The position numbers and the translations under genes are program-made. From Mytilus galloprovincialis (taxonomy: Eukaryota; Mollusca; Bivalvia; Mytilida; Mytilidae): a stretch of 64,000 nt of DNA. The notes below the pieces were generated by a model. That model was not told the DNA's origin, ran no database searches, and worked only from the letters and a program-made list of their open reading frames with translations. Positions 18,281 through 55,610 of the stretch are shown here, in pieces; positions within the stretch are counted from its first letter, which is position 1, and each line of letters opens with the position of its first letter. Where the stretch lies: positions 12,586,101 through 12,650,100 of the forward strand of contig NC_134845.1 of the NCBI RefSeq assembly GCF_965363235.1, written 5' to 3'.

Positions 18281-18375
18281 GTACAACTTCTGAGCACATC
18301 ACGATTTAAGGGAGTAAAAGATAACAGCGCTGAAGGATTTCCAAGGACAGGGTGTCTATCGGCTGAATTGCCAAT

Positions 18376-21850: not shown

Positions 21851-21860
21851 TAGCTAGATA

Positions 21861-26703: not shown

Positions 26704-29700
26704 GTAATTGTTGTAATTAGTAGTGTATAATAACTTTCTCAACACTATCTACAAATTTGTAAGCACAGTTAAGTCTATTTAAGGCAAGACATATGCAATT
26801 GGCAGATATATCAAATTTGAAAATCCTCAAATTTTGAAAAGTGTACGCATTAACAACTAGCATTTATTGAAAGAGTTGGTATTACTTTGCTTTATAAAAA
26901 AGAATGGCCAACGTAGATACAAGTATCTTGTCTTAGGCAGGGATAAATCATGATACTTTGTAAAGAATCACTCTGATTCAAACAAAAAATTCTCTGAAAC
27001 CGATATTATCAAGATGCTTGATTTCTTGATTGACAACATATTTGTAACGTTCGGAGGACGTGTTTTTCAACAGACTGTCGGCATCCCAATGGGAACAAAC
27101 TGTGCCCCTCTACTTGCCGACTTGTTTCTTTATTATTATGAGGCTGACTTCATGCAGGAACTTCTTAGGAAGAAAGATAAGAAGTTAGCAATATCCTTTA
27201 ACTCTACTTTCCGCTATATAGATGACGTTCTTTCACTAAACAATTCAAAATTTGGTGACTATGTGGAACGCATCTATCCCATCGAATTGGAGATAAAGGA
27301 TACTACAGATACAGTTAAGTCGGCTTCATATCTTGACTTACATCTAGAAATTGACAATGAGGGTCGGTTGGAAACAAAACTTTACGACAAAAGAGATGAT
27401 TTCAGCTTTCCAATTATGAACTTTCCATTTCTAAGTAGCAACATTCCAGCAGCACCTGTATGCGGGGTATATATCTCCCAATTGATACGATATTCCCGTG
27501 CTTGCATTTCCTATCATGATTTTCTTGATAGAGGGTTACTGCTCACAAGGAAGCTATTAAACCAAGAGTTCCAAATGGTGAAGTTGAAATCATCCCTTCG
27601 TAAATTTTACGGACGCCATCACGAGTTGGTTGACCGTTATGGAATAACCGTTTCACAAATGATATCGGATATGTTCCTTACGTCGTAACTACAATCCCCT
27701 TCCCTTTCATGAATGTGACCTACCGAATTAGACTATTTACCGGATTTGTAATCACATAAGCAACACGACGGGTGCCACATGTGGAGCAGGATCTGCTTAC
27801 CCTTCCGGAGCACATGAGATCACCCCTAGTTTTTGGTGGGGTTCGTGTTGTTTATTCTTTAGTTTTCTATGTTGTGTCATGTGTACTATTGTTTTTCTGT
27901 TTGTCTTTTTCATTTTAGCCATGGCGTTGTCAGTTTGTGTTAGATTTATGAGTTTGACTGTCCCTTTGGTATCTTTCGTCCCTCTTTTATTACCACTGGG
28001 TTGATGTCTCTGCTGGTGGACATTTTGTCCCCGAGGACATCATCCGCCCAGTAGCAAAACTACAATTGCATGAACTTACGAAGATCAAACAGGAAACTTG
28101 CTCGGACGTCGCCCAGTGGAAAAAGGTCCGATACAGACGTCACCATGGACACGGTGTCGTCTGATATGGCAGGTGTCCCCTCATCACCAGACATGACAAA
28201 TATCTCAAACACGACTCATTCAGATCATCGTCCTAGTGACAATAGCAATATTACACATATACAGCCATGTTCAGTTCTCCTTAAAGACATTTTGGTTTTT
28301 GATGACACAGTACAACACCGTCGCATTTCAAAATGTGAGACCAAAGGCTGCAAAACATGTACTATTTTAATTACAGATGCTGAATTCACTAGCAATTTGA
28401 CCAAGAAGTCATATTTTACCAGAAGTTACGATGATCTGAATTGTAAATCGATAAATGTCGTCTTTGCGGATTGGTATACGTCGGTGAAACGAAAGGAAGG
28501 CTAAACAAACGTATGTGCGGTCATAGATCAGACATTAACCTCAATGCTAACGACAATCTATACCAGCAATTCAATCAGCCCGATCATTCCATCGTTTCTA
28601 TGACAGTTCGCATTATCGAAAAGATATACCATAGCTCTAACAATCCTAATCTTTCAACGACTCTCCGTAGACAAAAAGAAGACTACTGGATTAGACAATT
28701 GGGAACTGCAACACCGTATGGCTGCAATGACAAAATTGATGGTATAGGTATTCTATCTAGTCCTTCTTGTAACTCGGTGAATGTGATGAATATTTTCAAC
28801 TCGACTCCTCTACGTACACGCAGTCATGGTCATCGTCATTATACATCACCTTCTCTGCATGATGTCTCTATTAATGACTTGCTGTCATTCATACAAAAGC
28901 CGTTAGGTATTCATCACATTCGCACGAAACTTTATTCATTACCCCTTACAAAACTTCATTCTCTGTTCAATTTATGTTTGGAATCCACTGTTACAAACCC
29001 TCATTCAAACCAATACAAACTTCAAGCTATAATTTCGGATATTGCAAGTCACAGACTTTTCAAGCCAGTTCGCATTGGAAAAGATGAAAAAGAGAAAAGA
29101 TCTTTTCTAAATCTTTCCTTTGCCAACAAAGGTCTCGATGGCGTCAACCTAGGCAATATCCTTCATCATAAATTAGTTCAATCGAAAATACCTCCTTATT
29201 TCAAAGACCAGTCTGTACCAATAATTTCTTATACCTATGCCAAACCTATTGCAACTAAAATTTTCAATTACAAACGCGTTTTGCAGAATCTCGATATTGA
29301 CGACTTCAAGTCTAAACCTCCTGATTGCACTTGTGCTAGTTCTCAATTCATATATAATCCTGCTGGCCACGTTATTACCGGTGACCTTAACATTGTTAAT
29401 AACACTTCTCTACGAAATGTGTTATCGAAAGGTCCGAAATATCGTGAGCCTAAATCCATCAATTGGAAATACAACTTTAAAATTTTGATGGACTCAGTCG
29501 AGGATTATGCCAGGCAATGGGCTAAACGTGAAAAGGAAGACTCGAATGGATTAAGGCAGTGAGGTCGTTAATACAAATCAGAATCAAGAAACTGAATGGG
29601 TCCATCAATGCCCATGCTACGTCAATCTTTAAAGACCCAAATGTTGCTAAACACTTATCCGACCTCCATGATACATATGTTGTTGTCCCCGCAGACAAAG

Positions 29701-32700
29701 CCCCAAATAACATCGTTGTTGTCTGTAAAAGTCACTACATTAATTGCTTGATAAACGAATTAGGTATAAACAATTCACTTGGAAACTCAACATATACCCT
29801 CACGACACTTACCAAAGAGGAAATCCTGGATAATCATAGGTCTGTTCTTTGTTTCTTTGGTATTTCAACCAAAGATGAAGAACTGGATCTTCCATCACTG
29901 TATTGGATACCTAAACTACATAAGTGTCCTTACAAACAACGGTATATTGCTGGGTCTTCCAAGTGCTCCACGAAACCTCTTTCTAAATTATTAACATCTA
30001 TTTTATCAGCAATCAAAGACGGGCTTCAAAGTTATTGTGAAGCTGCCTATTCTAGAGGTGGCGTGAATCAGATGTGGATACTTAAAAATTCCAAAGATCT
30101 TTTAGAGTACATACAATCTAACTCTCTTTCATCTTGTAACAGTATTAAAACATTTGACTTTTCTACTCTTTACACAAGTATTCCACATTCCAAACTAAAA
30201 GACAAATTGAAAGAGTTGGTATTACTTTGCTTCATAAAAAAGAATGGCCAACGTAGATACAAGTATCTTGTCTTAGGCAGGGATAAATCATACTTTGTAA
30301 AGAATCACTCTGATTCAAACAAAAAATTCTCTGAAACCGATATTATCAAGATGCTTGATTTCTTGATTGACAACATATTTGTAACGTTCGGAGGACGTGT
30401 TTTTCAACAGACTGTCGGCATCCCAATGGGAACAAACTGTGCCCCTCTACTTGCCGACTTGTTTCTTTATTATTATGAGGCTGACTTCATGCAGGAACTT
30501 CTTAGGAAGAAAGATAAGAAGTTAGCAATATCCTTTAACTCTACTTTCCGCTATATAGATGACGTTCTTTCACTAAACAATTCAAAATTTGGTGACTATG
30601 TGGAACGCATCTATCCCATCGAATTGGAGATAAAGGATACTACAGATACAGTTAAGTCGGCTTCATATCTTGACTTACATCTAGAAATTGACAATGAGGG
30701 TCGGTTGGAAACAAAACTTTACGACAAAAGAGATGATTTCAGCTTTCCAATTATGAACTTTCCATTTCTAAGTAGCAACATTCCAGCAGCACCTGTATGC
30801 GGGGTATATATCTCCCAATTGATACGATATTCCCGTGCTTGCATTTCCTATCATGATTTTCTTGATAGAGGGTTACTGCTCACAAGGAAGCTATTAAACC
30901 AAGAGTTCCAAATGGTGAAGTTGAAATCATCCCTTCGTAAATTTTACGGACGCCATCACGAGTTGGTTGACCGTTATGGAATAACCGTTTCACAAATGAT
31001 ATCGGATATGTTCCTTACGTCGTAACTACAATCCCCTTCCCTTTCATGAATGTGACCTACCGAATTAGACTAGTTACTGGATTTGTAATCACATAAGCAA
31101 CACGACGGGTGCCACATGTGGAGCAGGATCTGCTTACCCTTCCGGAGCACCTGATATCACCCCTAGTTTTTGGTGGGGTTCGTGTTGTTTATTCTTTAGT
31201 TTTCTATGTTGTGTCATGTGTACTATTGTTTTTCTGTTTGTCTTTTTCATTTTTAGCCATGGCGTTGTCAGTTTGTTTTAGATTTATGAGTTTGACTGTC
31301 CCTTTGGTATCTTTCGTCCCTCTTTTTTATACTTTCAGAGATACAATTAATTATTATTTGTGAAAGTGTGTCTATAAATATATGGAAAGTATATAAAAGT
31401 CTGGAAAAGTAAGAATTTTTCGTGTTAAACTGTGATTTCTCGAAAACCGTCAATAGAATTTTGTTTAAATATGGTGCATTTCCAGTTGACTACACCAAAT
31501 TACGTTTTGATTGTAAAGTATACTTAGTAGATTTTTAAATTATATTTTGCTATACAGTTTTCTTTTCTATGGCATCGGTGGCCGAGTGATTGAAGTAGTG
31601 TAGCACTAACCAGTCAACACTGATTTTGTGAGTTTTCATTCGGCACTTGGCAATATTAATTTACTCAAATTATGATTGACTAGCATTATCAGTTTTCTGG
31701 TGGAAGGTCGGTGGTTATTTCTGGGTTTTCCGTCTGCCACAACAACAATTAATGTCAGCCACCAAATAGCCCAGTAAGACTAAAAACGACGTTACACACT
31801 AATCAATAAATAAATCATTAAATTCCTAATACTTGTTTTAAATATATTTATTCACGTCATATTTTATTTTATATCAATTAGTTTTGTGTCAGGAGGAGCA
31901 ACCATTTATAGAGTGGAATATTATTGTTGCGCAAATTCCTATTCCAAGAATGGAGCATGTGAAATTATGTATATAAAAAGATATAATTGTCAAACATTTG
32001 AAAACTGTGGTAAACATGTATAAGACTGAGGTTTATTATAGTTTGTGAATCCATGTTCAAAATGTATCTTTGAAGTTCGGACATGCATATATAATCAATT
32101 TAATTAAATTCTAAATTCTCACACATGACGATGTTCCAATTGTCGTAGCTTCAATCCCGCCCCCTTTCCCCTGAACGTGACATACCTAATAAGGTTTTCA
32201 TCGGGTTCTGTACTGCCATGAGCAACACCACGACGGCTACCACATGTGGAGTAGGTAGGACCCGCTTACTCTTTCGTACCACTTGATATCATCCCTCATT
32301 TTTGTGTGTGGTTTGTGTAGCTCAGTCTTTAATTTTTAATTTTGTGTGTTTTTGTTAATTGTTAAAAGTTGATTGTACCAAACATGTCAAAATTCGTTAA
32401 AACAGTTTTATTAGACGAAAAAATGATATTATTGGTAAAATATTAAATCAACAGTTACATATACACAATCTTTTCAACATATTTTAAGTATGTCCAGTTG
32501 GTTATACTACAAACCAAGAAGGAACAGATTGTGACCCATGTCCAGATGGCCATTACGGTTCGAGATGTGCGTATGAATGTTTCTGTAAACAAGATGAACG
32601 GTAATTATGAATGCCCATTTTACGGCTTGAAATAGAAAATAAAAAAAAGTATCGAATCGTCAGAATAGATTTTTTTCTCCAAAATTTAAACTAGAAGTAC

Positions 32701-34235
32701 AAACAGAGTATGAGTTAGCGAAGGAAAGACAACACAATGGCAAATAGAAAAATATATATATAGAGAGAAAAAAACGAAAGACAACATTTGCACAAACAAT
32801 TACTTATTAATAAACTATATTGTATATATCGTACTACATCAAATCTGGTACATGATGATGATGATGATAATATGACTATATTCGTGTACTATAACTAATC
32901 AAGTAAAACCTCATTATGTTAGTCTGCTGTAATTGGATAGATACAAGTAGTACATACTTTATATGAAATAAGATTTTTATATTCTTCATTGGCCAATCGT
33001 GAATAGCCAAAAAGAGTGATTTCCTTTTAACTTTCATTTCAAACTAAAAAAGACAAGTTCTGTGGACAATGCTATTGCAAGGTTGTAAAGGTCCGTTGTA
33101 AACATAATTGAAACTCTTATTAAAGCACTGGAGTCATTCAATTTAAGAAGCTTTATAATTCATATGTTTTATTGATCATTCAGATGTAATAAGATTTATG
33201 GGTGTGTATCAGAGGACACAAACAATATGACGGTTAATCTGACAGGTAATGTATTTCTCGATATTTAACATATTTTGTGTTTTGAGATGTTTATTGCTTT
33301 TCTTAGAAAAATATATCAAAGCAATGATTTTACAAACTTTATTCTCATATAAAGCAACTTATTGAAGATGAATATCGAACTTTCCGAGTAGTAGGCCATT
33401 TAAACAACAATAAAACAAGAAACTTTATTTATATTTATATTAGATTTAATTGTGGAAACGAGACATTTCCTCAATATTGCCCCCTATCGCAACTTTGAAC
33501 AGGAAAAAACAATGGTTTTATTAATATTAGATGTTTATAACACATTTACAGGACAGGAACGAATTTTTCTAATGATAATTTATACCCTATTTAATTTTAA
33601 CATGACTAACATTTCGAGGCGAATAGTCGCTGATTTTATATAAAGTTTCACATGCTAATCGGAGAATTCGCAATAGAATTATAAAATATAAGCTTGTTCA
33701 TTTTTCAGATCACAGAATATTGTTAGGATTTTCAAGGAAAGACTTCCGAATCGCCGTCAACGAAGGATGTTCCGGACTTGTGTTGGTTATTTTCTGTGTT
33801 TTGGTAGGATATGTGAGTTATATCAAAGGTAATCAACATGCTGCCAATGTATGTGTATTTACTTTGGCTGATAACAACGTTGGCAGAATACAACTACCTT
33901 TACACCACTCTTCTCATGACGCAGAGGAAAATAGAAAAACCCATGATGAAATCAAGGAGATAACTTTCTATACAGAGGAACCTGCATTGATGATAGAAGA
34001 TAATGAAAACGAAAGAAATGAATATTGGAACAAGGACAATGAGGAGGGTGGTAGTGATAGTTACCTTACCCCTCATGAAACGACAGAAACATATGGTGAT
34101 GAATTTATCTGTTTTCGTAATGAGTATGAACAACAAACAGTTTTTAGAGATGAACCCTTTGATCCTATCTATCTCAACCTTTATCAACCACTAAATCATC
34201 AACCTGTACGTCATTATTATACTGAATTACAATAG
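26618..34235 (+). CDS. EGF-like single-pass receptor, paralogue 1 (five exons)
   Basis: Exons: 26618-26703, 31882 to about 31988, 32489-32600, 33184-33245, 33709-34235. The total is about 297 residues. Exon 1 is a signal peptide (MALNGLILTYVILFLINA) ending TCSRKR. Exon 2 carries a YYCC pair. Exon 3 is an EGF-like block (CPVGYTTNQEGTDCDPC, then YGSRCAYECFC). Exon 4 has CNKIYGC. Exon 5 has the span GCSGLVLVIFCVLVGYVSYI and an acidic cytoplasmic tail with tyrosine motifs (SYLTPHE, IYLNLYQPL, YYTEL). YLNL fits the pY-x-N class bound by Grb2-type SH2 domains. Phases agree with the paralogue at 49468. The weak point is the exon 2 donor: no GT lies where the paralogue has one, and the in-frame choice (near 31988) is poor. 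Intron 1 holds tandem Penelope-like elements. MEGF-like surface receptor is the best reading; the ligand is unknown. Confidence 0.7.
26867..27990 (+). mobile_element. Penelope-like element, 5'-truncated upstream copy of a tandem pair
   Basis: The copy begins inside the reverse transcriptase (LKELVLLCF) and includes the catalytic YIDD, the GIPMGTNCAPLLADL motif and the 300-bp 3' tail. It matches 30208-31322 almost perfectly; I counted about eight differences by eye in 1.1 kb. Tail-to-head junction with the next copy is the usual arrangement for Penelope-like elements, where a truncated leading copy acts as a pseudo-LTR. Confidence 0.9.
27993..28055 (+). ncRNA. Predicted folded leader at the Penelope-like element 5' boundary
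   Basis: Nested complements are visible: ACTGGG with CCCAGT (outer), GATGTC with GACATC (middle), GGAC with GTCC around ATTTT (inner). A further GCTGGTG could pair in part with CATCCGC, which would cross the middle helix and make a pseudoknot. It lies exactly at the copy-to-copy junction and is absent from the 3' end of the second copy, so it belongs to the 5' end of the unit. It does not contain the hammerhead core. Confidence 0.45.
28070..28504 (+). CDS. Penelope-like element, N-terminal region
   Basis: 144 codons: a basic start (RRSNRKLARTSPSGKR), a low-complexity Ser/Asp stretch, then FDDTVQHRRISKCETKGCKTC, whose three cysteines resemble the Zn-binding part before GIY-YIG in Naiad-type elements. 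YFTRSYDDLNCKSINVV leads into the endonuclease, which continues in another frame from 28471. Confidence 0.8.
   Translation: MNLRRSNRKLARTSPSGKRSDTDVTMDTVSSDMAGVPSSPDMTNISNTTHSDHRPSDNSNITHIQPCSVLLKDILVFDDTVQHRRISKCETKGCKTCTILITDAEFTSNLTKKSYFTRSYDDLNCKSINVVFADWYTSVKRKEG
28471..29562 (+). CDS. Penelope-like element, GIY-YIG endonuclease and linker
   Basis: 363 codons. VYVGETKGRLNKRMCGHRSD carries the YVG part of the GIY-YIG signature and the catalytic arginine of R-x3-GHR. KEDYWIRQLGT supplies the downstream glutamate region. The remaining 250 residues (SPSLHDVSINDLLSF..., ...KPPDCTCASSQFIYNPAGHVITGDL) form the conserved linker with a C-x-C pair before the polymerase. The enzyme nicks target DNA for primed reverse transcription (family knowledge). 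Confidence 0.85.
   Translation: MVYVGETKGRLNKRMCGHRSDINLNANDNLYQQFNQPDHSIVSMTVRIIEKIYHSSNNPNLSTTLRRQKEDYWIRQLGTATPYGCNDKIDGIGILSSPSCNSVNVMNIFNSTPLRTRSHGHRHYTSPSLHDVSINDLLSFIQKPLGIHHIRTKLYSLPLTKLHSLFNLCLESTVTNPHSNQYKLQAIISDIASHRLFKPVRIGKDEKEKRSFLNLSFANKGLDGVNLGNILHHKLVQSKIPPYFKDQSVPIISYTYAKPIATKIFNYKRVLQNLDIDDFKSKPPDCTCASSQFIYNPAGHVITGDLNIVNNTSLRNVLSKGPKYREPKSINWKYNFKILMDSVEDYARQWAKREKEDSNGLRQ
29559..31025 (+). CDS. Penelope-like element, reverse transcriptase
   Basis: 488 codons starting in an alternative frame that overlaps the end of the endonuclease part. Key blocks are VVVPADKAPNNIVVV, LYWIPKLHKCPYKQRYIAG, TFDFSTLYTSIPH (motif A Asp), QTVGIPMGTNCAPLLADLF (motif B), FRYIDDVL (motif C, YIDD at 30552-30563) and FLSSNIPAAPVCGVYISQ. 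All catalytic aspartates are present. Related to telomerase-type polymerases. Confidence 0.93.
   Translation: MRSLIQIRIKKLNGSINAHATSIFKDPNVAKHLSDLHDTYVVVPADKAPNNIVVVCKSHYINCLINELGINNSLGNSTYTLTTLTKEEILDNHRSVLCFFGISTKDEELDLPSLYWIPKLHKCPYKQRYIAGSSKCSTKPLSKLLTSILSAIKDGLQSYCEAAYSRGGVNQMWILKNSKDLLEYIQSNSLSSCNSIKTFDFSTLYTSIPHSKLKDKLKELVLLCFIKKNGQRRYKYLVLGRDKSYFVKNHSDSNKKFSETDIIKMLDFLIDNIFVTFGGRVFQQTVGIPMGTNCAPLLADLFLYYYEADFMQELLRKKDKKLAISFNSTFRYIDDVLSLNNSKFGDYVERIYPIELEIKDTTDTVKSASYLDLHLEIDNEGRLETKLYDKRDDFSFPIMNFPFLSSNIPAAPVCGVYISQLIRYSRACISYHDFLDRGLLLTRKLLNQEFQMVKLKSSLRKFYGRHHELVDRYGITVSQMISDMFLTS
31026..31322 (+). repeat. Penelope-like element 3' tail
   Basis: The tail runs CTTCCCTTTCATGAATGTGA through GGTATCTTTCGTCCCTCTTT. 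The same tail occurs in the truncated copy (27690-27990). It also occurs as degraded solo pieces at 20555-20700, 32130-32350, 34255-34440, 39440-39700 and 42330-42560, all five on the same strand, and possibly reversed near 43575. Confidence 0.85.
31569..31815 (+). mobile_element. tRNA-derived SINE (MetaSINE-like)
   Basis: The head GGCATCGGTGGCCGAGTGAT has an A-box of leucine/serine tRNA type. A decayed B-box lies about 60 bp on (GAGTTTTCATTCGGC). The body has GGTGGAAGGTCGGTGGTTAT and GGGTTTTCCGTCTGCCAC, resembling the central domain shared by mollusc MetaSINEs. It ends in AATAAATAAAT. It lies in intron 1 of paralogue 1, in the sense direction. Confidence 0.75.
31882..31988 (+). CDS. Paralogue 1, exon 2 (CC-pair segment)
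   Basis: Acceptor ATCAATTAG, then FVSGGATIYRVEYYCCANSY. It aligns with exon 2 of the 49468 gene (VMVSGQTVIRTLYFCCRHYE) in the same phase. The end is uncertain: the matching position reads GAAATT rather than a GT donor. The in-frame GT at 31989 is weak. Confidence 0.55.
32130..32350 (+). mobile_element. Penelope-like element 3' tail, diverged solo fragment
   Basis: GAACGTGACATACCTAATAA, GAGCAACACCACGACGG, CCACATGTGGAGTAGG and CTTGATATCATCCCT follow the order of the 31026-31322 tail with many changes. It lies in intron 2 of paralogue 1. The ORF part is absent. Confidence 0.75.
33709..34235 (+). CDS. Paralogue 1, last exon: membrane span and cytoplasmic tail
   Basis: Acceptor TTTTTCAG at 33701-33708. 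175 codons follow: a short juxtamembrane, one hydrophobic span (GLVLVIFCVLVGYVSYI), then about 135 mostly acidic residues with six or more tyrosines. The motif YLNLYQPL near the end corresponds to YLHPYQPL in the 49468 gene, so it is likely functional. TAG stop at 34233-34235. Confidence 0.75.
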
Positions 34236-38879: not shown

Positions 38880-40320
38880 TTAATCTTGTCTTGACCATTT
38901 CCAGACACACTTTCAATATATTATCAATATGCATACGAGTATATAATTGAGTGAACTCCTCACTAAACTCTACATGAATCCAAAATAAGTTAATATCAAA
39001 ATTTGCTGTAGAAAGCATGCAACTTGTTCTAGATACAAAAAAGTAGACCTATTAACATTAGATGGATCGATGTCAACAACAATCTTGTAGACCTGGATTA
39101 AATTCCCTGTTTTGATTCTAATTAAATTGTGTTACGTCAACCACTTAAGTTTTTATTTCTAATGATGTTCTATGCTTCTTTAATATCAATGTGCAATAAA
39201 CAAAACAAAAAACCACAATCTGTATTATTATACGCCATATCGCTTGTTTACTCACGGAAAATATTGCGGATTTAATGATTTTGGACATTCATTTTTCATT
39301 AAGGTCATAGTTGTATATTGTATAATGCATACAACTTGTAGACGTCAACCAAAATCTTGTATGTGAATCTAGTAACAATTATAACTCGAGTTCAAGGTGG
39401 TGAGATTGGAATTATTCACTGGTTGACTGGTGTCCATACTAAATATTTGGTTCACATATGACGACGATAATGTTAGAATTATAACGGCAATCCAGTCCTC
39501 TTTTCCATGAATGTTACATACCGAATAAAACTTTTTCGGGTTTTAATTACAATAGATTATTTCCGGGTTTTGGAGGGTATCGTGTTGTTATGTTGATTCA
39601 GGTGTGCTGTTGTGTATCTTTTTTGTGGCCATAGACTTGTGAGTTTGTTTTCGACTCATGAGTTTGAATATCCCTTTTGTATATCTTTCATCTCCCTTTT
39701 AAAGATTTTAAACTCTTGCTAAATGTTGTGAGTTTTTTTTCTCTCACCTAGCATCTATATCAGTTTGCCGATGTAAAAAAGTGCTAAACAGCATAAAATT
39801 GTACATTGTAGTACAACACATTACAAGTTATTTAGACTTGTTTTTATATTTTCTGCTTGTTTTTAAAAATGTTTTCTCTTTTATTCCAACTATGGAATTC
39901 TCCAGATTTTGGGTATTTTATATTAAAAAAAACCATAATGAAAATAGTAAAAGCTATATTTATTTCTTTATTAAGCTCCTTGCTACCGAATGACAAATAA
40001 ACTTTCATGTTTTCAAATGCATATTTAACTATTTTAACAACAATTATGTTCACAGGAGCAGTATCTACATATATCCATTTATTTATAAATCAATAATCCA
40101 TATGTGAATTTATAGAACCTAAGCTTTTCAAATAGTTTATTAAATCATCAAAAGTTTGGACCTTTGACAAGAGATATGTATCAATAGATATAGAAACTCC
40201 AACGATTTTCGTCCATTCGTATCAGATACGTTAATTGTTGCACAGTTGTCTAAAAGCAACCTGAGAATATGTTGAGGTCTTGTTATTAACCAATTCTTGG
40301 ACACACATTTTTAGTAAATA
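38880..40320. other. Non-coding, with a decayed Penelope-like tail at 39440-39700
   Basis: TTCCATGAATGTTACATACC, GGGTATCGTGTTGTT and TTGTATATCTTTCATC keep the order of the Penelope-like 3' tail with heavy divergence. I see no gene in the rest. Confidence 0.5.
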
Positions 40321-40533: not shown

Positions 40534-41633
40534 TCACTCCCGTAGACCATTCCGCAATCTGTTGGAGAGCATATCTTTATATTCTTCGGGGACCAAAATA
40601 TCAAACTTAGAACCATTCTCACCAGACGATGAACGTCGAAGCCTCTCTTGTATAAACGAACTTTCGCCATATAGAATAATACTACGTATCATATGTTGAC
40701 TTATACAATGTGAAATCATTAAAAAAATGTTTTTATGAAGAGATTCAAACCAAGTTGTTTTCTCTAAGACGTACAAATCTTGTATTGCAATGAAAGTTGA
40801 TAACAATAATGCGTTTGAAGAATTTCCGTTAAAACCTAATTCCTCCAATAACTCAGGCAGCATTCTTTTATATATGTCGCTGTTTGAGTGGAATAGGTTT
40901 TTATTAACTTTATTTCCACAAATAATAAGAACAGCAAACGCTAGGAAAACAGTATCACCTAATGACCGAAACCACTCTACTTCTTCTGCAATATAACTGA
41001 TAGGGAATGTAAAATATTCAATCATGTCTTCATTGTTGATCTCAGAAAATCTGGCACAAAGGGACGGAAAAAAATTGTATAACATGATAACGTCATCATT
41101 TAGACATTTCATATTTTCTGTGTTAATATAACATTCTCCTATTTCTCGTCTCTCTTGAATTGTTAGGCTCAAGCTTGCAGACAAAAAATCGACGTGGCAA
41201 AATAGTTTTAATGTCTCAATTTTATTTGCTGACCGGTATATGTAAGATCTACAGGTCATAACTAATTTGAGATTTGTGTTCCCTTTTAGGATATTTATCA
41301 AAGAGGAATCCTTTTGATACAACGACTTTGTACTTGACCTATCAACAGAATACCTTCCAAATGCATCATCAAATAAAAATATCATCTTGGATTCTGCTGA
41401 CGAATATTTCAAAATGTCATCTGTATCAAAAATTATCCAAATTTTGAAACCGTCGTTTTTCTCAAGGTTTAGAGCTGCATGGAATGTTGAAGAAGATTTT
41501 CCACAGCCATCGGGTCCAGTAACAATTACAATCTGGCTTTGCTTAATACTTTTTAATATTGCCGTAAATGCATTTGTTTTAATAATGGCATTAAACTTTG
41601 TTTTCCACTCTTCTTTGACTTTGGTATTCAAAT
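40534..41633 (-). CDS. Receptor last exon: P-loop NTPase (nSTAND3-like)
   Basis: Acceptor TGTGTTTTAG just before 41633. The frame opens D-L-N-T-K-V-K-E-E-W, then a helical lead, IVIVTGPDGCGKSS (Walker A), KIWIIFDTDD, KMIFLFDDAFGRYSVD (Walker B with paired Asp), and LKLVMTCRSYIY (sensor-like Arg). About 220 further helical residues with winged-helix-like character follow. The frame closes at LRNGLRE. A potential donor lies inside that end (AATG/GTCTAC), so an extra exon is conceivable. Confidence 0.85.
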
Positions 41634-44600
41634 CTAAAACACATTATATCTTTATGAAGTAGAGTAGAATAGTGTATGTTTTAAGTATTATGTCACTTAG
41701 TAAATTCAACTAAATAATACTGATTGATGTTAGTATTTAAATCGATGACGTAATCCTCAATAATTATAAGATGTTTCCAGTAAAAAAGAAACATGTATAC
41801 ATTTTATTACTTAATGAATTACTACAAGATGTTACGGCTGTTGGATTTGTATTTGACCAATCGGTATCAAAAGAATGGTTTAATTGCCATTAATTATAAA
41901 AAAAAACCCGATTACTTCAATTATAATAAAATAAAATACTCCGTTTCACATTGCATTGATGGTATTGAAACGATAAATTAGTCATTCACCATTAAACGGT
42001 TAATTTGGCAAATGAGTTGTGTTTCTGCTACTATTATTGTTTTTTTTTTCAAAATGTAAGAACATGTTTGAAAGACATCGACATTGACCTTCAAAATAAA
42101 CATATATATTTATAATCGCAGAAATTGATTGCTATAAAAGAAGACACTTAAAATGAAATAAAACATATAATCTGATGGTTTGTTATATACCATGGTCATT
42201 GGAATCTTTAATCAATAGATGTAATTGTAATTGAATTTAATTTAATAAGTTGCTAAGACAGGGCTATGAATCAATCAAATTAAGGTCATCACTCAAGAAA
42301 TTGAACGATATGCCATTATGTCAAAAGTGTGTCAGAAATCATATCTGATATTCTTCCCCAGTCATTACCGAACTGAACAAGGAAATAACACAACGGGTGC
42401 TGTATACGGTACAGGAAATGCTTACCCTTCCGGAGCACCTGATTTCACTCCCGGTTTTTAGTGTTGTTTCTTATTTATTATTTGTAACTGTTGATGTAAA
42501 TGTCTTTTGGTTTTGTGAGTCTTTGTTTACTCCTTGGTTTTGATTGTTATTGTCTTAATGCATTACTTTATAAAAATGTTGTGTAATTTCATGCATTACA
42601 TGGCATTACTTTTTTTTACATACTATATATATTAAACAGATTGTTTGAGAATTAGCTAAAGCAGAATCTAAGATTTCTGGATTGAGTTAGAACATAATCA
42701 TTTTAATATTATTTTTTTTATTTGAAAAGCATTACTGTAAAGTAATTTATTGTTGTCAAAATATCAATGAATACCTTGTCATGATTAAATAACAGAACAC
42801 TGACCATTGACCATTGTCACAAAACACTTATTAGTTTGTTTTACAATCAATCTTTTCACCATTTTGACACATGGTCATGAATTGATAATGAAATGATAAA
42901 ACATATCAAACGAATGGACAAGAACTGTCATATTCCTTACTTGGTACAGGCATTTTCAAAAGCAGAAAATGGCGACTTGAACCTGATTTTATAGCGCTAA
43001 AGCTCTTACTAGTATGACAGTCGCATCACATTCCATTATTTTTACAACAATAAGTGAACAAAACAGACAATAGTCAAAATATGGTTACAGCAGTCATCAC
43101 GTCTGTGTCACAATCTCCAAACAAAAACATATTTAACAAAAACGCACAGAAAACATCTATCAAATTTAAAAAACCACATGCATTGGTTTGCGTGTTTGAC
43201 GTCATAAAATAAAAACGTCACATAAAAGAAATATAAAATAATTTGGCCGTTCAATGTTTTTAGAAAAAAAATATTAGTTCACATGGGGAATGGTGGTGTT
43301 AGAACTTATTTCAGAAACAGACCGTGATTTGAAAATTTCCAGAAGTTCTTTAGTAGTTATAAGAATCCACATATTGTTAATACCAGTAGCGAGTAAAATA
43401 ATGTTGTCGTTCAAAGTATTTGAAACTTTATAAAAGTACCTTTTTTATCCTGTGGAACATGGTTATGTGACTGAAAAATAACTTCCGCACCTGAAGACTG
43501 ACATATGACTCCCATACCTGTAAAAAGAAAAAAATGGTTTGCGCATATAATTTGAATACTAGTACAGCTGTTTTATACAAGAGGGACGAAAGATACCAGA
43601 TGGACAGTCAAACTCATAAATTGAATTAAAAACTTCATGATCAGGACTGTTGCAACATTTCACATTTAGTTTCACAGCATGCATTCAGTTTCATTTGAAT
43701 ATTACATGGCATGAATAATGCCGTGACAAAACTCTAAACTGAATTCAGTTTTTCTTTTCTAAAGAAGATGCATACTTGAATAGGATGTTATAATGCTAAA
43801 ACAAATTGTAAATAAAATCAAACATCAGTATGGTTAGCAATGCAATTAGGGCATTAAGTCAGCAACCACGTATTCAAACGAGGAAACTAATGGCCTACTT
43901 CATGTAAAAATAATGAACAAAAACAACAATTTAACACACCAACAAACGTCAACCACTGAATTTTAGGTTCATGACATGTGACAGGCATGTACAGAGTGTA
44001 CCTTCTACCATCGTCAGTAGGGAGGAATCAGAAATCATAGCCATGGAATTAAACAAGTTACCTATCAGAATGATCAACAAGACAGTGATAAAAATCGTTA
44101 TATTGGCAAGTCCAATGAGTATGCTGAGTATAATGCTTGGCATGGAACTTGACTTCTTAGTACCTGCAAAAACAATAAATATATATATATTTCACAATAT
44201 CGCTTAACAATAGTTTTAGAGTAAAGATGATTTCCATTTCTTTACTAATTTTTCGTCACATTTTAGATGTGCATTTTCAAAGACCTATATATTTATATGA
44301 CTCCATAGTGTTAACTCTAGGAGATGTTGTGAAGACAACAATTCAAAAGAAATTCAATAAGTATGATAAGATATTGACATATCCATGATGTTATTGCCTG
44401 TTACAGATCACCATCGTTTAGATGGATTTACCTATCATTTTTGGTAACTGTTATATATAATTTATTATATATAATTTATTATATGTTTCGGTACTTATAC
44501 ATCTTTGGGTTTCAATATTTTGGCTTGGAGAGTTCCAGATGGAAGAGAACCATGAAAAGTGCTTCCGATCCATACAGTTTATCATTTTCGTTATCTGTGA

Positions 44601-47154
44601 AGTGAAATCAGAATTGGCATAACTATATTAAAGTGAGAAAATTTACGTAATTTATTGTTTACTTTTTTGATAGTTGGTTTCCTTAGATTATAATTTCCGG
44701 TATGATATTATTATTTTCTGTTTCTCCACATGGTCTCTGTTTTTTATGTTTTAATTTCAGTCCTAGATAGTTACATCGAAAAAAGTTAAATCGCAAACGC
44801 AGATAAACTTTGTGAATACGTAAACATTGCTCATTCATATTCTGTGACCGAAATTTTTTTCTAACATTCCAACCACTAAATATAAATATGGTATATTGTC
44901 ATTTTTGTGTGCTCTAATGATGCATGATTTTTTTTATTTGGAACATTCTTGGTATGATTGTAAAGGAATTGCTATAGTTAACGTAGTACTAATTAACAGA
45001 ACGAAACATATATAGGCGATACATGGCATTACTTTACCTTCCTCATCCATTTGTGAGATTTGCGCTAATGGTCTTTCTTTATCTCTACCAAATAGAAGAT
45101 TTTAAGTTAAATGATATTATAGATGCTTCGTTACATTGAGGCTAATATTGATATGCATAAACAAGAAATATCACACTCAAATATTGATGGATTGTTTATG
45201 TTTCAAAATTTATGTAATATAATAATACCGAACGCAACTTATTTTTTGTTTTTGTTGCTAGAATGGAAAAGGGAAAAGGAGGGTCTCATACTAAATGCAT
45301 GTTCTTTGAGTGTTTGAAGTCGATGAAAGAGAGCGTTCTGTTTAAGGGTAGGCGAGTCTGTTCATTCATCAGTCCATGCCATTGAACAATGAGATATGGT
45401 TGTTAGTATCAAATTAAAGTTTCCGGTTGAAGTAGTTAACCATGCAGTTGCTGTCAACGTTATCTTTTAAATTTTGTGAATTTTTCATTTCAATTTCAAC
45501 GTGTAAGTATACGTTTTCGCAGCTCAATGAACATTGAAATATGATATACCGTAGAAGATTAACCTTTTGTTATGTTATTTTACCACAAAATATAAGTCAT
45601 CTCGATTTAACACATGGTACACATGTGCATTATCACATGGACTTAACTATATATATGCCAAATTAGTATTGACTCATTATTTCGTAATTCAAGCACTGAG
45701 CATGAAAATATGACAGCGAGTGCGATGCATTGTTTACTATATATTCATATCCTTTATATGGAGTTATTTACAATTATTGAAAATACTGAACCTACCTTAC
45801 ATTATCCGGTATCATACTGCAAGTTGATGTCATACTCCAATTTGACAGCTTTACACAGTTATAGTCTGAAAGATTTTCTTAGAAGATTGAAATAAACATA
45901 CAAAAAAATCTTAATTTTTTTATTATATCTTAAAATGAATTATTGTAAATTGTTTTTCAATTTGAAAATAAAAAAATTAAAGTCTTAAAACAAATCGTCT
46001 ACTTCTATTTTATAAACTAGCCTCTAGTGTTCCACACAATGATTTATAAACAAACAGAAAACTTTATGACAAACGCATATACCAATACAAAAAGATCAAT
46101 TGTTTTTAATGCAAATTGTGTTTATTTACCTGGAGTCAGTACAAAATCAGATGGACACTCTTTTTTGTAACATGAACAATCTTCCTTTGATGGTTCACAG
46201 TAGCAAGCATACGCTGGCCTTTTGATAAACTTGTAGCCCCTTCGGTAATCACAGCGACATTGTCTATCGGTCTTGGTAGTACCGTTGTCGTAAATAATTT
46301 GTCCTTCTGCATTGCAGGGGGTCTTTTTAAATGCGCAGGTAGAACTACCATTCGTCCAGTATTTGAAGGGTTGGTATACATCATGTTCACAGTCGACGCC
46401 TTGAATACCACCAACAATTACTACTTTATGACCTAAAATTATTTGAAAAAATTTCATTAACTATTTTGTCCAAAAAAAATGTCACTTTTGTTTTGCCTTC
46501 TGTGTGTATTGTCCTCTAGATTTCACTCTTGTCATGACTTAATAATTCTTTTCTGTTATTTGATGTAAATAGTCAGATATAGGTAAACGGAAATACAAAA
46601 TTTGTGTTCTTCATAAGATCTTATCCATATCATAATACACCAACTGGGACATAAGGTGGAGTTTAGTTTGCTATACGTTTAGTTGACGTCCCATGTATCA
46701 AATTCAAACCAGAAAAAAAAAAATCAAAATTGAAATAACGAATTTGAATGCACCTTTGATAAGAATAAAAAATATAGAGATATATATAATGCCATGGTAA
46801 AAATTCAATTAATGTCCGTTTCGAATATGTAAAACAAGAATATATAGTAATACGGCATTAGTTTAAACAATTTTGTAGACAAAACCAGTTAAAGGTTTTT
46901 TTTTCTAGAATTCATTATTTTTATACAATCATCTTATAAATGGTCATACCTGGAGAATCAAATGTAGGGGTTTCCTGGCATATTTCTGTATAATTTCTAT
47001 TGTTGTCATCATGTAAACAGTAATATTGGTCTGCAAAATTACAAGCGGTCTTAGCTCTATAAAACCATTGCGATGTACTTGGACAGAAGAATTCGAGGCA
47101 GTAAGTAAGTGGAAAAGAGGCAAGTCCAAGGTACATAAGCAATAATAAATGCAT
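40534..47154 (-). CDS. Transmembrane receptor with Cys-rich ectodomain and intracellular nSTAND3-like P-loop NTPase
   Basis: Exons (- strand): 47154-46950, 46432-46130, 44163-44062 (or to 44002), 41633-40534. All junctions have GT/AG and the same phase, giving 569 (or 589) residues. Residues 1-19 are a signal peptide (MHLLLLMYLGLASFPLTYC). The ectodomain to about 170 has some 18 cysteines, NGSS and NYT glycosylation sites, and the blocks CPSTSQWFYRAKTACNF and CDYRRGYKF. I recall these as a mollusc-expanded family. One span (IILSILIGLANITIFITVLLIILI) follows. The cytoplasmic part has Walker A GPDGCGKSS (about 243-251), Walker B MIFLFDDAFG (about 288) and TCRS (about 330), as in nSTAND3 NTPases of animal immunity. 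The protein ends soon after the NTPase and its helical extension; a further 3' exon cannot be excluded. A ligand-triggered, ATP-dependent signalling receptor is inferred. Confidence 0.75.
41640..44000. other. Receptor intron 3: three repeat insertions
   Basis: It contains a Penelope-like 3' tail at 42330-42560 (+; CTTACCCTTCCGGAGCACCT), a copy of the 34440-type repeat reversed at 42840-43200, a short reversed Penelope tail end near 43575 (AGAGGGACGAAAGATACCAG), and a copy of the 7615-type repeat at 43850-43997. The last one abuts the alternative end of the membrane-span exon. Confidence 0.7.
44002..44163 (-). CDS. Receptor exon 3: membrane span
   Basis: Acceptor TTTTTGCAG; G-T-K-K-S-S-S juxtamembrane; 25-residue hydrophobic span. 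Two in-phase donors exist: ATAG/GTAACT after 44062 and GAAG/GTACAC after 44002. The longer form adds 20 residues. The shorter is nearer the consensus. Confidence 0.7.
46130..46432 (-). CDS. Receptor exon 2: Cys-rich ectodomain
   Basis: 101 codons between AATTTTAG and CCAG/GTAAAT. Twelve cysteines include CRCDYRRGYKF, ACYCEPSKEDCSCYKKEC. Contains the NGSS and NGTT glycosylation motifs. The GY-x-F / CxC spacing recalls a TNFR- or EGF-like cysteine ladder, but I cannot assign a named fold. Confidence 0.8.
46950..47154 (-). CDS. Receptor exon 1: signal peptide and first Cys segment
   Basis: The ATG at 47154 directly follows an acceptor (TTTTACAG). This implies a 5' UTR exon further upstream, and a perfect donor ACTACAG/GTAAGT at 48049 fits. 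An upstream Met at 47184 is in frame but would be intronic. The signal peptide ends near LTYC; CPSTSQWFYRAKTACNFADQ follows. Donor CCAG/GTATGA. Confidence 0.8.
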
Positions 47155-52400: not shown

Positions 52401-55400
52401 AATTTGGTAGAACGTTATGGAATATTCATTTCAAATATGCCAACCAAAAACGTTCATCGCACGTGACTTGGCACCAAATTTTAAATGAGTAATTCGACGA
52501 TCAAAAGTGAAGCAGGAATCGGTTACAATTCCACGACTGCTATGTGACTCCCTTTCGGTTTTTTTTGCATAGTACGTAATTACAGGGTAGTATTATAGTT
52601 TTTTTGGTTTACTATTGTTTTGCCTTTTAGCAGTTTTCTATCTGGTAAACTGTCCAGTTTTCTTGGACTGTATTTTTTTGGTTATAATCTATTCTTGACA
52701 TATTACATGTATCCCTCTTTTTGTATACTCTCAATATTTCCTCGACTATCATGAAATTAATACTTATTCCAATGACATAATGCATATGTTAATACAAGGA
52801 CGCATTACAATAGCATAAAGTAAATTGATAAAATATGTTTTTTTTTTTTAAATTTTAGAATGCGATACAGGATATGAATCTAATGGAACAAGATGCGAAC
52901 CTTGCAAGACGGGTCAGTTTGGTATAAAATGTGCAGACACATGTCATTGCAAAACACACGAAAGGTATGGCCTTATATTTTGTACTACACCAAACTTTAC
53001 ATGATAATATAATGTTAATTCGAGAGGATTATTTCTTTTCAATGTAATATGTTAATGACGTTCATTAAAATTACAAAATGGCAGACACAATCCTCTTTCA
53101 GTTTAGAAGGCATGTGAACGCATTCTTTTGTTTTTGTTTCAGATTAAAAGCTGTTTAAATGATTTGCTATTCGAAAATCATGGATATATTATCTACCACA
53201 AAAATACTAAGAATTTTTTAATTGTGCTGTGATGATATTAATCATAATCTGTATTGTAACCAAGTCTTTACTATAATAAAATGAAGGGATTAAGCCATTT
53301 ACTTTTTTATGCAGGTAAACGAAACAGTGAACCAAAACAGTGAATTATAGTTTTCAAGATATATTATGTTATCGACACACTGTCTGAAAACACAGAAACG
53401 AAATAACACTGTATTGTTGTCAATATAATTGATGTTATGCGACTGTTATATAAGTGAGAGGTTTGGCTATCTATATAACCAGATAAATTCAAACTATCAT
53501 TGTCTACATAAGAAGATGCCCGCAACAAGTTAGGAATATGACCGATGTTATCCATTCGTTTGATGTGTTTAAACTTTTGATTTTTACATCTGATTATGGA
53601 CTTTCGGTTTAGAATATTCCTCGGAGTATTTTTGTTATTTTACCATTTATCAATAATTGTTATATTTTTCTTCATTTATTCAGCTGTGATCATATTCGGG
53701 GATGCATACAGTCCACAAATCAGCTTATAACAGGGGAACATATAACTCCTATCACAGGTAAATAATTAGGGTGAAACAATTTAGGCATTTCCTTTTCAAC
53801 TATTTTAAGAGAAATGTATTTTGTCCTATCATTTTTACCGATTTACTACTTGTAATTTTTCTATGATCATTGAGTTTAAATTTCTATTTTGTGACGTGCA
53901 TTGTCCAGCAAGCTGAAGATATGCGTATACGTCCCTGTCTCCTAATGATACAAAACAACCGTCATTGACTGAAGATTGCAAACAGATGTTCCCAAACGCT
54001 TGCTTGCTTTCTTGAATGATTGCTTTTGAAAAAAATAACCCAACTTAATAAGATGACTATTCCACATTTTCATTAAAAATATTTCTATAATATTAGATAT
54101 CTACCGTTCCTAAATTATATAAATTAAAAATGGTAATTACAAATACATGTATCAACACTTCTTTAAAAATAATAGATATTTTTTATACATTAATGGTGCA
54201 ACATGTCAAGCTTTCAAAGTAGAGTATACACATTTGACAAAAACTACCCATGGTCTGACATCAACACTCATTTTGTAGGTGCAAAGGTTGTTTTGTAAAT
54301 ACTTAATCGGTACCTCCTCCTATACCTAGATATATTTATGAATGTAAAAGGAAAAGCCAAACATTAATTTGTCTCATCAAAACCATTATATTTTTTATGA
54401 AATGCCTCAAATGAAAGTAAAACAAAACCATTCTTTAAAATTTCATGATTTTTGTTTGTTATAGAGAAGACAGCAAAGGACTCTGAAAATGAAGGTAAAA
54501 TATTGAAACATGATAATTAGAAAACGTTGTTGTTTATCTTCACACATTTGATTTTGAATAAAGTAACAAAACTAATATGTACTATTATAATAAGACAGCG
54601 ATGACATTAATGGTACATATTATACTACGGTAGAAACCCATTTCAATAGTTAATGTGTCTCCAGGGCTAATCGATTTCAAAATATATATTTGAAATCAAA
54701 ATAATATTAGAACGTTTTTAAGAGATATAATTCTTAGTTTGACATCGTAGTGTGTTATAATTTTCGGTTTATTTCAGTCTTATACAGCATAATTAGTAAT
54801 ATCACTCAAATAAGGAGACCTTGGGGATATTATACATTACAGAGAAAACCTAAAAATTTTCAATTGTAATATTTCTTCACTGTATAGTTTTGGAAAATCT
54901 AATATAAAAAATTATTATTTTTAGGTTTTCTAAACAAGGAGAGTGGTGTATATTTTGGTAGTTTCGGATTACTCGCATTTGTTATATGTATTTTAATGGC
55001 TTATATCTGTTATAAAAAGGGTAAAAGAAAAGCAGGTGCAAATGTGCCTAAACAAAATACAAACGAATTGGCAATGGATATAAAATGTCTTGTTCATGGG
55101 ACCAAAGGTGAGATGATCACAAATGAAAATGATTATGACGAAATTGACGAGAGGTACTTGTCCGATGTTAAATTGGCAGTAAATCAAGAAAAAGATTTCA
55201 AGAAAAAGGAAAAAGTTCAGCCAGGTGGAAGCAAACATTCGAAGAAAGAAAAAAACAACAGTTCTAGCAATCCTTATCAACTAGTTGTTTCTTCTGCAGT
55301 AGATGTTCACGAGTACTCATCCCCTGAGAAGGGAGACAACTCGGAGGATAATTACCGGGATTCGGGGTACCTTCATCCATATCAACCACTGTCACTGGAT

Positions 55401-55610
55401 GCCAAAATTCTTAAACACGACTATACTGAATGTAAAGATTTAGATATTGTCGAATCTAAAGCCACAATAGACAATACAGATCTTAAACATGACTATACTG
55501 AATGTGAAGATTTACAGAGTGTTGAAGCCCTTACCAGAAACACTAAAGAAGACGATGCAGATAAAGAATTCGAAGCAGTGAAAGAAGAAGACACATCTCT
55601 TTCGGTTTAA
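49468..55610 (+). CDS. EGF-like single-pass receptor, paralogue 2 (six exons)
   Basis: Exons: 49468-49559, 50572-50654, 52859-52964, 53684-53757, 54465-54494, 54925-55610. All have GT/AG borders with compatible phases, and the sum is exactly 1071 bp (356 residues). Residues 1-20 are a signal peptide (MDAGQIMFYVVLFYLPSIQC). VCSKEK follows, then YFCCRHYE, an EGF-like unit (CDTGYESNGTRCEPC, FGIKCADTCHC), CDHIRGC, a 10-residue micro-exon, and the span FGLLAFVICILMAYICYKK. The 190-residue cytoplasmic tail is charged and tyrosine-rich: DYDEIDERYLSDV, NPYQLV, GYLHPYQPL, and two copies of KHDYTECxDL, which could be phosphorylated docking sites. Single EGF unit plus tyrosine tail resembles a shortened MEGF10/Draper-type receptor. 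Function in recognition or uptake is inferred. Confidence 0.85.
50040..50530 (+). repeat. Dispersed mussel-type repeats in intron 1 of paralogue 2
   Basis: Two pieces of one family: about 50040-50180 (AAGAAGATGCGGAATGATTG) and 50290-50530 (CAATGAGACAACTATCAGCC, GGCCTATTCAAATACAAC). They end just before exon 2. Confidence 0.65.
51060..51830 (+). mobile_element. LINE reverse transcriptase fragment in intron 2 of paralogue 2
   Basis: In changing frames it reads VTSGVPH, GPLLFLLYINDIGYDI, LFADDSLLYLA (catalytic FADD near 51215), PYLGAEFTNTMAWDKHVNEV, IKRALGFIRRNVGFCPEEVK, ALVRPHLEYA, then LIPLETRRKIASISLFHKAI. It is the palm-to-thumb part of a CR1/Jockey-like element, with a gap after FADD and several frame changes. 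It is dead. Confidence 0.85.
51900..52850. other. Rest of intron 2, nothing recognised
   Basis: No coding segment fits the receptor family between the LINE fragment and exon 3. The open frame at 52005-52316 on the - strand has no recognisable content. Confidence 0.45.
53400..53655 (+). repeat. Dispersed mussel-type repeat in intron 3 of paralogue 2
   Basis: Copy of the 34440-34730 family (TATGCGACTGTTATATAAGT, GGACTTTCGGTTTAGAATAT, CCTCGGAGTATTTTTG). Confidence 0.75.
54925..55610 (+). CDS. Paralogue 2, last exon: membrane span and cytoplasmic tail
   Basis: Acceptor TTATTTTTAG. The span runs through FGLLAFVICILMAYICY, stopped by KKGKRK. The tail is 190 residues with about ten tyrosines. The pair LKHDYTECKDLD / LKHDYTECEDLQ is an internal duplication. 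TAA stop at 55608-55610. Confidence 0.85.

What the first reader, a model, noticed from the sequence alone, without database searches (positions are those of the whole stretch)
40534..47154. A surface receptor with an intracellular STAND-type NTPase
Four exons with matching phases join a secreted Cys-rich ectodomain and one membrane span to a P-loop NTPase with clear Walker A, Walker B and sensor residues. STAND NTPases are normally cytosolic immune switches; one tethered behind an ectodomain would couple outside ligand binding directly to NTPase switching. The exon join is seen in sequence; the nSTAND3 label rests on motif resemblance; the signalling role is inference. The architecture may be a mollusc-expanded receptor class.
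Basis: partly seen in the sequence, partly recalled or inferred. Interest (0 to 1): 0.85.

Follow-up and report, generated by a model that had tools for sequence, protein, structure and literature searches.

The report
Membrane receptor with internal NTPase switch
A gene in this animal genome joins a secreted cysteine-rich outer domain and a membrane span to an immune-type NTPase; many sister genes repeat the layout, so it looks like a family of receptors, but this copy lacks the ankyrin-repeat tail of its relatives and seems stitched together from two differently aged halves.

Summary
The receptor-NTPase gene is real. It has seven coding exons, not four (634 aa, no internal stop): signal peptide, Cys-rich ectodomain, TM, short juxtamembrane piece, nSTAND3 NTPase (81.9 bits against a cut-off of 27.2). 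All seven recur in order in a paralogue 0.4 Mb away, with AG/GT borders and length changes in multiples of three. On the same chromosome, 25 of 28 scored nSTAND3 exons have an ectodomain exon upstream on the same strand (rotation null mean 0.4). Elsewhere 33 of 84 scored nSTAND3 exons have a HEPN_DZIP3 exon upstream instead; none of the 112 has both. Two things were missed. Relatives run on from the NTPase into ankyrin repeats; the window copy stops just before them. And it looks mosaic: E1-E5 differ from the nearest paralogue by dS 0.33, the NTPase exon by dS about 1.6. Closest printed precedent: Crassostrea virginica Cys-rich/TM/DED/TRADD-N receptors, some with STAND C-termini (Kaur 2021); this variant shows no DED or TRADD-N. 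Expression, ligand, NTPase activity and signalling are untested.

The parts
46950..47154 (-). E1: signal peptide and first Cys-rich segment, phase 1 out
   Evidence: open frame, donor GT, 66% identity to paralogue exon; AG just before the ATG
46130..46432 (-). E2: core of the Cys-rich ectodomain (conserved QP, GQ, CRCDY, GY.F, EDCSC)
   Evidence: 87% identity to paralogue; the ectodomain query has 150 scored matches in the genome, two of them E1 exons
45796..45865 (-). E3: last ectodomain Cys pair (DYNCVKLSNWSMTSTC), phase 1 in, 2 out
   Evidence: 77% identity, splice borders kept, 6-nt length difference; an E3-like match also follows a C12 ectodomain exon (E 6e-4)
45038..45084 (-). E3b: linker exon, phase 2 in, 1 out
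   Evidence: 47% identity, splice borders kept, 3-nt length difference
44062..44163 (-). E4: transmembrane span
   Evidence: a phase 1-1 TM exon lies between E2 and E6 in distant paralogue L071:4513-4581
43440..43517 (-). E5: juxtamembrane exon
   Evidence: 69% identity, same length
41634..43333 (-). Part of intron 5 without detected DNA similarity to the nearest paralogue (inferred junction of young front and old NTPase exon)
40534..41633 (-). E6: nSTAND3 NTPase and helical region; Walker A GPDGCGKS, Walker B IFLFDD, TCR sensor; stop just before the ankyrin array of relatives
40143..40283 (-). Possible remnant of one ankyrin repeat after the stop (weak)
   Evidence: E 0.02 and 0.06 with two relatives; no Pfam match up to E 10

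Best explanation
It is one member of an expanded family of type I membrane receptors: signal peptide, Cys-rich ectodomain, one TM, short juxtamembrane piece, cytoplasmic nSTAND3 NTPase and, in the relatives examined, ankyrin repeats. SHOWN by sequence: exon order, profile membership, co-linearity over many loci, splice borders shared with a paralogue. INFERRED mechanism: the NTPase is an ATP/ADP-gated oligomerisation switch, as in other STAND proteins (general knowledge); ligand on the ectodomain, or a cytoplasmic ligand on the ankyrin array, releases autoinhibition, receptors cluster at the membrane and recruit a separate effector, most plausibly for immune or self/non-self recognition. The front (ectodomain-TM) takes the N-terminal slot held by a Sir2 effector in Avs5 and by HEPN_DZIP3 at other nSTAND3 loci here. 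The window copy kept an open NTPase frame but lost the ankyrin array, and its front and NTPase have different ages, so front and switch were recombined, probably through intron 5. If made, it would act as a receptor without the inner sensor, or as a modulator of its relatives.
For: Gene model; nSTAND3 81.9 bits; seven exons in order in the paralogue; of 148 E2-type hits, 28 lie within 50 kb of a scored nSTAND3 exon and for 25 of these the nearest is downstream on the same strand; C8 25 of 28, rotation null mean 0.38, maximum 11 in 2000; E2 and E6 identities correlate across 18 of the 25 loci, r 0.71, 0 of 2000 Mantel permutations as high; ectodomain-linked NTPases cluster on a 38-row tree, 2 label changes against a shuffled mean of 12.2, 0 of 500 as low; Ank and nSTAND3 in three of three relatives scanned; HEPN upstream of 33 of 112 scored nSTAND3 exons, E2 upstream of 25, both upstream of none; dS 0.325 for E1-E5 against about 1.6 for E6; nSTAND3 is the NTPase of anti-phage Avs5 (passages).
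Against: No transcript or protein evidence. No effector domain found in this gene; ligand unknown. The window NTPase has the longest end branch of the ectodomain group (0.87; sisters 0.18 and 0.24), which fits relaxed constraint, so this copy may be on its way out. The tree does not give the ectodomain-linked NTPases as one side of a branch: well-supported branches force two changes. E1-E5 against the nearest paralogue have dN/dS 0.43 (E2 0.22, E1 0.62, E5 0.79): no sign of diversifying selection at exon level. Two lysines lie on the outer side of the TM (by eye), so the topology rests on the signal peptide. 120 of 148 ectodomain exons have no scored nSTAND3 exon within 50 kb, and 6 of 28 C8 nSTAND3 exons also have one downstream on the same strand, 1 on the other strand.
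Confidence: 0.6

Rival explanations
1. The window copy is a decaying pseudogene of the family: ankyrin array deleted, NTPase evolving fast, no product of consequence.
For: Stop just before the ankyrin region of relatives; at most one weak repeat remnant; longest end branch of its group; five other short E6 copies examined are frameshifted.
Against: 365 full codons of E6 without a stop, motifs kept; seven exons keep splice borders and phases; E2 dN/dS 0.22, E1-E5 0.43 against the paralogue. Unlike the five frameshifted copies, here the ankyrin DNA was not found in any frame.
Confidence: 0.35
2. Two genes: a secreted or membrane ectodomain protein (E1-E5) and a separate nSTAND3 gene with its own promoter.
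For: No transcript shown; E1-E5 and E6 differ in age; ectodomain-to-NTPase distances run from 4.5 to 45 kb over the 25 loci.
Against: Phases join throughout without a stop; same order and strand at 25 loci; ectodomain and NTPase divergence correlate across 18 loci.
Confidence: 0.05
3. The ectodomain exons belong to a mixed receptor class with several intracellular partners; the C8 nSTAND3 family is one of several fusions.
For: 120 of 148 ectodomain exons have no scored nSTAND3 exon within 50 kb; a C12 copy has E2 and an E3-like match but no NTPase in the roughly 5.7 kb fetched after E2; two loci have a Death-domain exon 57 and 67 kb downstream.
Against: Only 112 of 579 nSTAND3 candidates were scored, so partners may have been missed; no scored Death (104) or HEPN (150) exon lies downstream on the same strand within 50 kb of an ectodomain exon.
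Confidence: 0.4

Closest known systems
Crassostrea virginica receptor-like TRADD-N proteins (Kaur et al. 2021, PMC8195603; section 10 read whole, passages elsewhere)
   Same: Bivalve lineage-specific expansion; Cys-rich ectodomain, one TM, intracellular immune-type module; variable C-termini that can include STAND NTPases and ankyrin repeats.
   Different: Those have DED and TRADD-N after the TM; here the TM leads through a 26-residue exon to nSTAND3, with no DED or TRADD-N match. Homology of the two Cys-rich ectodomains could not be tested.
Bacterial Avs5 (AVAST type 5) anti-phage STAND proteins (PMC12931631; passages only)
   Same: Central NTPase of the same Pfam family, nSTAND3 (PF20720), followed by C-terminal repeats, as in the intact relatives here.
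   Different: Avs5 starts with a Sir2-like effector; here that slot is a secreted ectodomain and TM. Repeats are ankyrin in the relatives and absent in this copy.
Bivalve HEPN_DZIP3-NACHT-repeat proteins (Pinctada fucata, PMC9646362, passages; HEPN survey PMC3710099, passages)
   Same: Tripartite STAND-type layout, clustered and expanded in a bivalve; HEPN exons precede other nSTAND3 exons in this genome.
   Different: N-terminal HEPN instead of an ectodomain and TM; the passages speak of NACHT, not of nSTAND3.

Membership tests
nSTAND3 (PF20720) STAND NTPase | Profile match above curated cut-off | tested here: met
   81.9 bits against 27.2, E 5e-23
nSTAND3 (PF20720) STAND NTPase | Walker A, Walker B and sensor residues intact | tested here: met
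   GPDGCGKS, IFLFDD, TCR aligned with 22 relatives; motif names recalled
STAND tripartite layout | C-terminal superstructure repeats | tested here: not met
   Not found in the window copy; present in three of three relatives scanned
STAND tripartite layout | N-terminal effector domain | tested here: not met
   No domain other than nSTAND3 above its cut-off in the 634-aa model
STAND tripartite layout | Nucleotide-gated oligomerisation | not testable with these tools
   needs purified protein
C. virginica Cys-rich/TM/DED/TRADD-N receptors | Cys-rich ectodomain and TM | tested here: met
   homology to the oyster ectodomain not tested
C. virginica Cys-rich/TM/DED/TRADD-N receptors | DED and TRADD-N after the TM | tested here: not met
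   No such match listed at E up to 10 (HMMER's filters drop most matches above 0.1); only 26 residues in E5
TNF receptor family | TNFR_c6 repeats in the ectodomain | tested here: not met
   None in the window member; 1 of 19 members at E 0.0052
Avs5 | Sir2 effector before nSTAND3 | tested here: not met

The most novel reading that the evidence does not exclude
This genome carries a family of surface receptors in which an Avs5-type nSTAND3 switch, with an ankyrin sensor, hangs directly behind a Cys-rich ectodomain and TM, and front and switch modules are reshuffled between members by recombination in the last long intron. Such a receptor could sense on both sides of the membrane, and the family would be a modular recognition system built on an NTPase shared with bacterial defence.
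Probability: 0.4. Interest if true: 0.8.

Novelty: new variant of a known kind. Interest (0 to 1): 0.62.

Why it matters
STAND switches are usually described as cytosolic (general knowledge). A family in which the switch is built into a surface receptor would link outside recognition to NTPase-driven assembly in one chain, in an animal that relies on innate immunity. The NTPase family is that of the anti-phage Avs5 system, so intact members give a direct test of whether an animal reuses that switch at the membrane. The co-linearity and age data make exchange of ectodomain and switch modules testable. The window copy itself is the odd one out and a weaker subject than its intact relatives.

Tried and rejected
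Viral contigs gave no relative of E6 or E2. Ectodomain profile against solved structures: nothing better than E 0.27; single sequence: none. E6 against solved structures: nothing better than E 0.34. PADLOC: best match of E6 is PDC-S73, E 1e-11; not followed up. TNFR membership rejected. Death domain as a usual partner of the ectodomain: 3 of 148 exons have a scored one within 80 kb, two of them downstream on the same strand. The TIR list was fetched but not put through the co-location script. L072 (8 kb after a C8 ectodomain exon) gave no recognisable TM or NTPase exon. A scan for a phase 1-1 TM exon in L071 found none because its minimum length was 70 nt (one search was also empty); the exon is 69 nt and was found by hydropathy and reading. 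TM/E5 as a genome query finds this gene and its near paralogue plus one hit at E 0.6. Passages of PMC7159879 hold no nSTAND term. Organism: not identified by any search; bivalve (Mytilus-like) is inference; a search for a matching assembly paper listed none.

Full report
What is there. The minus-strand gene at 47154-40534 exists, but with seven coding exons rather than four. E1 starts with ATG at 47154 and a hydrophobic signal-like stretch; E2 carries most of the Cys-rich ectodomain; E3 adds a last Cys pair; E3b is a short linker; E4 is the membrane span; E5 a 26-residue juxtamembrane piece; E6 the NTPase. E3 leaves in phase 2 and E3b returns to phase 1; the other internal joins are phase 1. 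The model is 634 residues without a stop. Models without E3 and E3b, or also without E5, are open too; the paralogue is what argues for all seven. A second, weaker hydrophobic stretch lies inside E6.

The NTPase. E6 matches Pfam nSTAND3 with 81.9 bits against a cut-off of 27.2, E 5e-23; the other families listed stay below their cut-offs. Walker A, Walker B and the TCR sensor align with 22 relatives. The ectodomain has no Pfam family (TNFR_c6 in 1 of 19 members at E 0.0052) and no solved relative by sequence. Its family signature is 16 invariant columns among 19 members, eight of them Cys (19 chosen of the 30 printed).

Is the join real? The genome of the window is held (G000, 1.385 Gb, window at C8:12586101-12650100). 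The paralogue at C8:13.01 Mb has counterparts of all seven exons in order and on one strand. AG and GT fit their borders, and length differences are multiples of three (read). A distant paralogue at C8:54.57 Mb (L071) has E2 (53%), a TM exon of matching phase and E6 (32%) in order; its E1, E3, E3b and E5 were not recognised with the window pieces, and little DNA upstream of its E2 was fetched. Over the genome, the nSTAND3 query gave 112 scored hits of 579 candidates and the ectodomain query 150 of 340. Leaving out two E1 matches, 148 ectodomain hits remain; 28 lie within 50 kb of a scored nSTAND3 exon, and for 25 the nearest one is downstream on the same strand, for 2 upstream on the same strand, for 1 on the other strand. 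Two of the 25 are 44.5 kb apart and less sure. On C8, 25 of 28 nSTAND3 exons have an ectodomain exon upstream; rotating positions gives 0.38 on average and 11 at most in 2000. Six of 28 also have one downstream on the same strand and 1 of 28 on the other strand. For 18 of the 25 loci both exons were fetched (the two 44.5-kb ones included); ectodomain and NTPase identities correlate (r 0.71, 0 of 2000 permutations as high). Ectodomain-linked NTPases (23 rows) cluster on a 38-row tree: 2 label changes, shuffled mean 12.2, 0 of 500 as low; but well-supported branches force two changes, so they are not one side of a branch, and several outsiders sit on long branches.

Two N-terminal solutions. HEPN_DZIP3 exons, 150 scored of 711 candidates, lie within 50 kb upstream of 33 of the 112 scored nSTAND3 exons; ectodomain exons lie upstream of 25, all on C8; none has both; 54 have neither. 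So the genome seems to fit the same NTPase family with either a HEPN front or an ectodomain-TM front. Only the best hits were scored, so counts are lower bounds.

What is odd about this copy. Relatives carry on from the NTPase into an ankyrin array; three of three scanned have Ank and nSTAND3 well over cut-off, about a dozen repeats by eye, and most of the other fetched E6 frames are 630 residues or longer. The window copy stops where the relatives approach that part. A single weak repeat-like stretch remains at 40283-40143 (E 0.02 and 0.06), without a Pfam match. Five other short copies (L015, L020, L035, L036, L037) still have their ankyrin DNA in another frame; here it was not found. The window NTPase also has the longest end branch of the ectodomain group, 0.87.

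Mosaic. Against the C8:13.01 paralogue, synonymous divergence is 0.325 over 243 codons of E1-E5 and about 1.6 over 357 codons of E6. E2 pS is 0.27 (0.16-0.40), E6 pS 0.66 (0.58-0.73). Selection on the protein alone would not split synonymous rates so; two histories, joined by recombination or conversion, would. Detected DNA similarity ends at window 43333, in intron 5. The paralogue's E6 is closer to that of L010 (pS 0.35) than to the window's. The window pair is the strongest case, not the only one: of the 23 pairs of loci with E2 pS under 0.55, 5 have E2 and E6 intervals that do not overlap (window pair; L048/L027 with L050/L028 and with L058/L036; L043/L031 with L058/L036; and, the other way, L042/L014 with L047/L012, a 44.5-kb pair), and 18 overlap. 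One more pair, L049/L023 with L058/L036, has a close NTPase (82%) and a distant ectodomain (47%). E2 is only about 100 codons, so single pairs are noisy.

Mechanism. Shown: architecture and family. Inferred: STAND-type gating and clustering at the membrane, recruitment of an unknown effector, an immune or recognition role. In Avs5 the same NTPase family sits between a Sir2 effector and C-terminal repeats that its authors suggest could recognise phage ligands (passages). In the intact relatives here the repeats are in place and the effector slot is taken by the front. Without ankyrin repeats the window copy could only respond through the ectodomain or act on its relatives; or it is decaying.

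Prior art. The one close precedent found is Kaur et al. 2021: C. virginica receptors with Cys-rich ectodomain, TM, DED, TRADD-N and variable C-termini including STAND NTPases and ankyrins. The version here shows no DED or TRADD-N. The listings of searches for nSTAND3 and for STAND or NACHT with transmembrane, ectodomain, ankyrin and bivalve or mollusc terms show no other title or abstract start that describes ectodomain-TM-nSTAND3; I saw the listed papers only as titles and abstract starts, except PMC8195603, PMC12931631, PMC9646362, PMC3710099 and, fetched by its DOI, PMC7159879 (passages or a section). Open-licence texts only. Whether sequence databases already hold such proteins was not testable here.

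Limits. 

Noticed in passing
C8, C12, C3, C11, C14 and other contigs of G000: 120 of 148 ectodomain exons have no scored nSTAND3 exon within 50 kb; on C12 a copy carries E2 and an E3-like match (L073). Their intracellular partner is unknown.
   Followed up: partly
L015, L020, L035, L036, L037: Five nSTAND3 copies with ankyrin DNA continuing in another frame: pseudogenes or assembly errors.
   Followed up: partly
L049/L023 and L058/L036 (C8:54.58 and 54.66 Mb): Another discordant pair: NTPase 82% identical, ectodomain 47%.
   Followed up: partly
L026 (C8:54.11 Mb): NTPase nested among ectodomain-linked ones on the tree but no scored ectodomain exon within 50 kb.
   Followed up: no
window 28447-31025 and 26954-27688: ORF with a GIY-YIG-like look (recalled motif, no Pfam match) just before a reverse transcriptase ORF (RVT_1 27.1 bits, under its cut-off of 29.6); the end of the latter is repeated at 26954-27688. 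Endonuclease before RT may be an unusual retroelement order.
   Followed up: no
window 18367-20172: TRIM-like ORF in one open frame: B-box, TRIM coiled coil, NHL.
   Followed up: no
window 21858-22598: Reverse transcriptase fragment, RVT_1 58 bits.
   Followed up: no
window 33627-34235 and 54903-55610 (+): Two ORFs with a hydrophobic stretch and long polar tail (by eye), no Pfam match; possibly last exons of other receptors.
   Followed up: no
E6, window 40537-41631: PADLOC model PDC-S73 matches at E 1e-11 over residues 7-160, another link to bacterial defence STAND proteins.
   Followed up: no
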